From the NCBI GenBank assembly GCA_020152595.1, contig JAIGNY010002171.1, positions 3,618,501 to 3,682,500 on the forward strand: a stretch of DNA of 64,000 bases. The letters run 5' to 3'. The notes under the pieces are model-generated. The model was given only the letters and a program-made list of their open reading frames with translations. It did not search any database and was not told the DNA's origin. How positions within the stretch are numbered: the first letter of the stretch is position 1; every line of letters begins with the position of its first letter. This stretch comes from Chiridota heheva (lineage: Eukaryota; Echinodermata; Holothuroidea; Apodida; Chiridotidae). The position numbers were made by a program, and so were the translations under genes. Shown in pieces: positions 2,480 to 28,465 of the stretch.

Positions 2480-28465
<25,986 letters not shown>

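What the first reader, a model, noticed from the sequence alone, without database searches (positions are those of the whole stretch)
24927..24946. One-base frameshift inside a conserved ENPP exon
Upstream codons (to [10 protein letters not shown]) and downstream codons ([13 protein letters not shown]) both match the family, but lie in frames one base apart. The upstream frame meets TGA at 24951. Exon 21 joins in phase only with the downstream frame. Every other exon and all catalytic residues are intact, so a sequencing or assembly error, a segregating null allele, or a very recent loss are the options.
Basis: partly seen in the sequence, partly recalled or inferred. Interest (0 to 1): 0.7.

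Follow-up and report, generated by a model that had tools for sequence, protein, structure and literature searches.

The report
Frame break from likely assembly error
An otherwise intact animal enzyme gene seems to be broken by one missing base, but other healthy-looking genes in the same genome assembly show the same kind of break, so it is most likely a sequencing error and not a lost gene.

Summary
Window 2480-28465 (+) carries an ENPP1-3-type ectonucleotide pyrophosphatase/phosphodiesterase gene; my hand-built model has 24 exons and 23 GT-AG introns. Its 20th exon (24846-24977) switches frame between about 24930 and 24941: the upstream frame meets TGA at 24951, and only the other frame joins the next exon. 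Allowing one shift raises the alignment score to three solved homologues by 29, 18 and 26 units. The model shows no other stop or shift in about 800 codons.

The cause is most likely a consensus error. The same assembly (1.10 Gb, 3744 contigs) has lone one-base losses in two other clean-looking genes: an ENPP4/5-like gene on C2114 and an HSC70-type gene on C2902. Two such breaks in roughly 18 kb of control coding sequence would give a 2.4-kb gene about a one-in-four chance of one. No second copy of the exon was found, and the one slippery heptamer in the stretch scanned lies past the stop. A segregating or recent null allele remains possible; only reads would settle it. Low interest.

The parts
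2480..28465 (+). ENPP1-3-type gene, 24 modelled exons; the 5' start is not settled (first modelled exon 2480-2521)
   Evidence: hand-built exon model with GT-AG at all 23 introns, one open frame except exon 20; Phosphodiest PF01663 E 2.1e-96, Endonuclease_NS PF01223 E 5e-5; best solved relative ENPP3
4508..21301 (+). exons 4-17, catalytic phosphodiesterase domain (ends within exon 17) with the conserved Asp/Thr/Asn/His positions present
   Evidence: alignment to ENPP3 6f2t, E 5e-106; roles of the residues recalled
24318..24472 (+). exon 19, ends in phase 0
24846..24977 (+). exon 20, 132 bases; going from phase 0 to phase 1 would need one more (modulo 3)
24930..24941 (+). interval in which the frame changes; no base run longer than two
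   Evidence: runs; breakpoints 24931, 24931, 24937
24951..24953 (+). TGA met by the upstream frame
25446..28465 (+). exons 21-24, rest of the nuclease-like domain, open only in the downstream frame
24897..24898 (+). AG inside exon 20 that could join exon 19 to the downstream frame without a stop, at the cost of the conserved RPDVRV...NCSSA stretch
   Evidence: the one stop-free site of nine in that frame; use not shown
24720..24861 (+). imperfect duplication (spacing 73-76) of the end of intron 19 together with the first 16 bases of exon 20
   Evidence: also seen as the second match

Best explanation
The gene is an ordinary ENPP1-3-type ectoenzyme gene that is probably intact in the animal. 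One base of exon 20 is missing from the assembled consensus, most likely an uncorrected indel of a long-read assembly, which makes the frame appear to break between about 24930 and 24941. Shown: the frame switch, the intact remainder of the model, and lone one-base losses in two other clean-looking genes of the same assembly. Inferred: that the base is absent from the consensus and not from the animal, and that the assembly was made from long reads.
For: (1) The gene looks clean elsewhere: 24 modelled exons, all 23 introns GT-AG, no other stop or shift in about 800 codons, domain matches on both sides of the break. (2) The same kind of lesion occurs in other clean-looking genes of the assembly. 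The ENPP4/5-like gene on C2114 loses one base inside a contiguous exon between HGIV and GNHMYDP. The HSC70-type gene on C2902 has an A-run one base shorter than its 95.7% identical sister on C94 (1619 of 1691), while the 72 mismatches between them fall 13/14/45 on codon positions, as in a selected gene. (3) Two such breaks in roughly 18 kb of control coding sequence predict about 0.3 breaks for this 2.4-kb gene; the control is HSP70 44 rows, 12,663 nt, HSP90 17 rows, 3,348 nt summed from the table, one exon piece of each of two other ENPP loci, 701 and 552 nt, and the neurensin gene, 813 nt. (4) The exon was found once in the assembly, so no second haplotype contradicts or supports it. (5) Polished nanopore consensus of bacterial genomes is reported to keep indels that shift reading frames, and Racon and other polishers to add false deletions (PMC8011154, passages seen).
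Against: The interval 24930-24941 has no run longer than two bases, whereas reported long-read consensus errors sit mainly in base runs. The HSP90 control (17 rows) showed no same-exon frame pair, two of three large-exon HSC70-type genes are open, and so are the C1010 ENPP exon and the neurensin gene. The error rate rests on two control events, and each could itself be a real allele. 15 of the 44 HSP70 rows and 4 of the 17 HSP90 rows report a stop inside the matched stretch; I followed up only one of these (C2180). The sequencing technology of this assembly is not known. No reads could be examined. Larger controls did not complete by the server.
Confidence: 0.78

Rival explanations
1. A real loss-of-function allele: either heterozygous in the sequenced animal and picked by the collapsed assembly, or a very recent fixed loss. 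The truncated product would end SSALKIT*, lacking most of the nuclease-like domain, and the message would be a likely target for decay because four introns follow the stop.
For: The break is not in a base run longer than two. Only one copy of the gene was found, so the other haplotype was not seen. A lone lesion fits a young allele.
Against: Lone one-base losses in two unrelated clean-looking genes of the same assembly would need several independent young nulls among the handful of genes inspected. This is also the only locus found with nuclease-domain exons of this family, so losing it would leave no obvious replacement.
Confidence: 0.17
2. Splicing restores the frame: the AG at 24897-24898 inside exon 20 joins exon 19 in the downstream frame, or short donors at 24856 or 24877 join exon 21 in phase.
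For: These joins are stop-free or in phase on paper. Other combinations, such as a different exon 19 donor, were not scanned.
Against: Each discards the conserved RPDVRV...NC stretch that matches the solved relatives in the upstream frame. The acceptor at 24845 follows a pyrimidine-rich stretch (by eye) and gives family-like sequence.
Confidence: 0.03
3. Programmed -1 ribosomal frameshifting within exon 20.
For: Geometrically the downstream frame is the -1 frame.
Against: In 24900-24960 the only XXXYYYZ heptamer starts at 24956, past the TGA. No such recoding is known to me in ENPP genes (recalled, not searched).
Confidence: 0.01

Closest known systems
ENPP3 (ectonucleotide pyrophosphatase/phosphodiesterase 3; solved structure 6f2t)
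   Same: Catalytic domain aligned over the whole query (E 5e-106) and nuclease-like domain aligned to near the C terminus.
   Different: No somatomedin-B domain found in the model, short stalk after a hydrophobic segment; exon 20 frame broken in the assembly.
Indel errors of long-read consensus sequences (for example Homopolish, PMC8011154, passages seen)
   Same: Lone single-base losses that break otherwise conserved reading frames.
   Different: The break here is not in a run longer than two bases; the technology of this assembly is unknown.
Segregating loss-of-function alleles in outbred animals (recalled)
   Same: One young lesion in an otherwise intact gene.
   Different: Cannot be told apart here without reads.

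Membership tests
ENPP family, ENPP1-3 type | Type I phosphodiesterase/nucleotide pyrophosphatase domain | tested here: met
   PF01663 324 bits, cut-off 23
ENPP family, ENPP1-3 type | Conserved metal-binding and nucleophile positions (identity of the residues recalled) | tested here: met
   [24 protein letters not shown] and GTHGY line up with MDGFR, KTFPNH, EEPDSAGH, ADHGM and GTHGY of ENPP3 6f2t
ENPP family, ENPP1-3 type | C-terminal nuclease-like domain | tested here: met
   Alignment to ENPP1, 2 and 3 chains through this domain; PF01223 23.5 bits against cut-off 23 for the piece after the break
ENPP family, ENPP1-3 type | Two somatomedin-B domains (typical of vertebrate ENPP1-3, recalled) | tested here: not met
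   No PF01033 match at E 0.001 in the modelled protein; a missed exon is not excluded. I therefore call it ENPP1-3-type by its nuclease-like domain, not an orthologue of any one vertebrate gene.
ENPP family, ENPP1-3 type | Single membrane anchor near the N terminus | tested here: inconclusive
   Hydrophobic stretch in exon 2, no predictor run; start codon not settled
Pseudogene | Several disabling lesions | tested here: not met
   One lesion in about 800 codons, all splice sites canonical in a hand-built model
Programmed frameshift site | Slippery sequence in the upstream frame before the stop | tested here: not met
   Scan of 24900-24960
Assembly consensus error | Reads of the same animal disagree with the consensus | not testable with these tools
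   No reads held; indirect support

The most novel reading that the evidence does not exclude
The animal truly carries the broken exon and yet keeps a functional product, either through the internal acceptor at 24897-24898, which would rewrite the start of the nuclease-like domain, or because a protein truncated there still works as an ectoenzyme.
Probability: 0.03. Interest if true: 0.35.

Novelty: not a real feature. Interest (0 to 1): 0.08.

Why it matters
Mainly as a caution: lone frame breaks in this assembly should not be read as gene losses without reads. If the break were real, this animal would lack, or carry a null of, the only gene found here with the nuclease-domain exons of this family, which would touch extracellular nucleotide and pyrophosphate metabolism.

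Tried and rejected
An acceptor at 24861 for exon 20 was considered first and rejected, because it puts exon 19 out of phase with the conserved RPDVRV frame and would have implied a second shift; the AG at 24845 fits both phase and sequence.

Programmed frameshifting was rejected for lack of a slippery site before the stop, and splice bypasses were judged unlikely. Decay as a pseudogene was rejected (one lesion only). A retained second haplotype or another copy was looked for and not found in the whole-assembly searches (these score only the best candidates) or in 140 kb of flanking contig (only chance-level matches). The whole-assembly search with the catalytic half did not complete.

In the HSP70 control a second same-exon frame pair (C2180:767.5k) was dropped from the clean count because that exon also carries an in-frame stop and looks decayed. 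The four C2410 rows of the 48 were dropped before the count: that 15-kb contig holds an HSP70-like stretch broken over several frames, which may be a processed copy or a poorly corrected contig. A frame pair was counted only where two rows lay within 60 bases, so breaks whose second half scored below threshold are missed. A first version of the alignment script timed out.

Wider controls (7tm_1 PF00001, myosin PF00063, actin PF00022) did not complete by the server, so the error rate rests on few genes. The assembly size resembles the published Chiridota heheva sea-cucumber assembly (1,106,937,276 bp, 4609 contigs, nanopore plus Illumina polishing, 2% heterozygosity; PMC8913654, passages seen), but contig number and size differ (3744 and 1,100,099,931), so the species is not claimed. 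Paper searches were seen as listings only, apart from the passages of PMC8913654 and PMC8011154.

Full report
What is there. The window lies in a 1.10-Gb assembly of 3744 contigs, on contig C2156 at 3618501-3682500. On its + strand, 2480-28465, I modelled 24 exons by hand, with GT-AG at all 23 introns. The translated product matches Type I phosphodiesterase (PF01663, E 2.1e-96) and, after the break, Endonuclease_NS (PF01223, E 5e-5). Its closest solved relative is ENPP3 (E 5e-106 over the catalytic part; the alignment continues through the nuclease-like domain). The residues recalled as metal ligands and nucleophile are present.

The break. Exon 20 is 24846-24977. Its upstream frame reads [35 protein letters not shown] and stops at TGA 24951; the frame one base back reads [12 protein letters not shown] and is the only one that joins exon 21 in phase. 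Against three homologues the alignment gains 29, 18 and 26 score units by one frame shift, at 24931, 24937 and 24931. Shifted and unshifted scores both exceed all 200 shuffles of each homologue, so the shuffles speak for homology and the gain for the shift. The acceptor of exon 20 has to be the AG ending at 24845; the next fitting-looking AG, ending at 24861, would put the conserved RPDVRV out of frame.

Is it biology or assembly? The rest of the modelled gene is clean, so an old pseudogene is unlikely. I looked for the same lesion type elsewhere in the assembly. The two other ENPP loci that the search found match only the catalytic part. The one on C2114, ENPP4/5-like by its solved relatives, has a lone one-base loss within one contiguous exon, between EESHGIV and GNHMYDP. 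The one on C1010 is open over the exon inspected. Of three large-exon HSC70-type genes found with PF00012, those on C94 and C3393 are open and the one on C2902 has a lone break, an A-run one base shorter than in the C94 copy; those two copies are 95.7% identical (1619 of 1691) with 72 mismatches split 13/14/45 over codon positions. Among 44 of the 48 HSP70 rows (12,663 nt; the 4 rows of C2410 left out) there are two same-exon frame pairs, one clean (C2902) and one in an exon that also has a stop (C2180). Among 17 HSP90 rows (3,348 nt, summed by hand) no two pieces lie closer than 60 bases (read by eye). 15 of the 44 HSP70 rows and 4 of the 17 HSP90 rows report a stop inside the matched stretch, which may be exon edges read too far or further lesions; only C2180 was followed up. 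The neurensin-like gene in the window is open.

This gives two clean lone breaks in roughly 18 kb of control sequence, or about 0.3 expected in a 2.4-kb coding sequence. The estimate is rough: it rests on two events, and partial matches below threshold would be missed. A real null in a given gene of a given animal is rarer (recalled: on the order of one in a few hundred genes in humans, more in highly polymorphic animals). Taken at face value that favours a consensus error by ten to one or more; I discount it to 0.78 against 0.17 because of the thin control and because the context has no run longer than two bases. In favour is the report that polished nanopore consensus keeps, and polishers may add, deletions that shift frames in bacterial genomes (PMC8011154, passages); whether this assembly is of that kind is not known.

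Other mechanisms. In 24900-24960 the only slippery heptamer starts past the stop. An internal AG at 24897-24898 would join exon 19 to the downstream frame without a stop, and donors at 24856 and 24877 would join exon 21 in phase, but all lose conserved sequence; other combinations were not scanned. The exon was found once in the assembly, apart from a 64-base match to a duplicated intron end just upstream.

Verdict. The finding is ordinary until reads say otherwise.

Noticed in passing
window 43693-44577 (-): Single-exon neurensin/TMEM74-like gene (PF14927, E 2.7e-24), open throughout.
   Followed up: partly
window 12400-14500 (-): Decayed LINE-like stretch with endonuclease- and reverse-transcriptase-like pieces in several frames (judged by eye; no family search run).
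   Followed up: no
window 11483-11851, 15265-16358, 35101-35687, 43079-43361: Very long AT dinucleotide arrays, the longest about 1.1 kb.
   Followed up: no
window 17642-17928 and 19826-20291: Minisatellites of period 19 and 31 inside introns of the ENPP gene.
   Followed up: no
window 24720-24861: Duplicated 3' end of intron 19 including a copy of the acceptor and first bases of exon 20.
   Followed up: partly
L030 4716-5416: ENPP4/5-like gene on C2114 with a lone one-base loss between HGIV and GNHMYDP.
   Followed up: yes
L038: HSC70-type gene on C2902 with an A-run one base shorter than in its sister gene on C94.
   Followed up: yes
L040 (C2410, 15-kb contig): HSP70-like stretch broken over several frames: processed copy or poorly corrected contig.
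   Followed up: partly
window 2480-4599: The modelled ENPP lacks somatomedin-B domains between its hydrophobic segment and the catalytic domain.
   Followed up: partly
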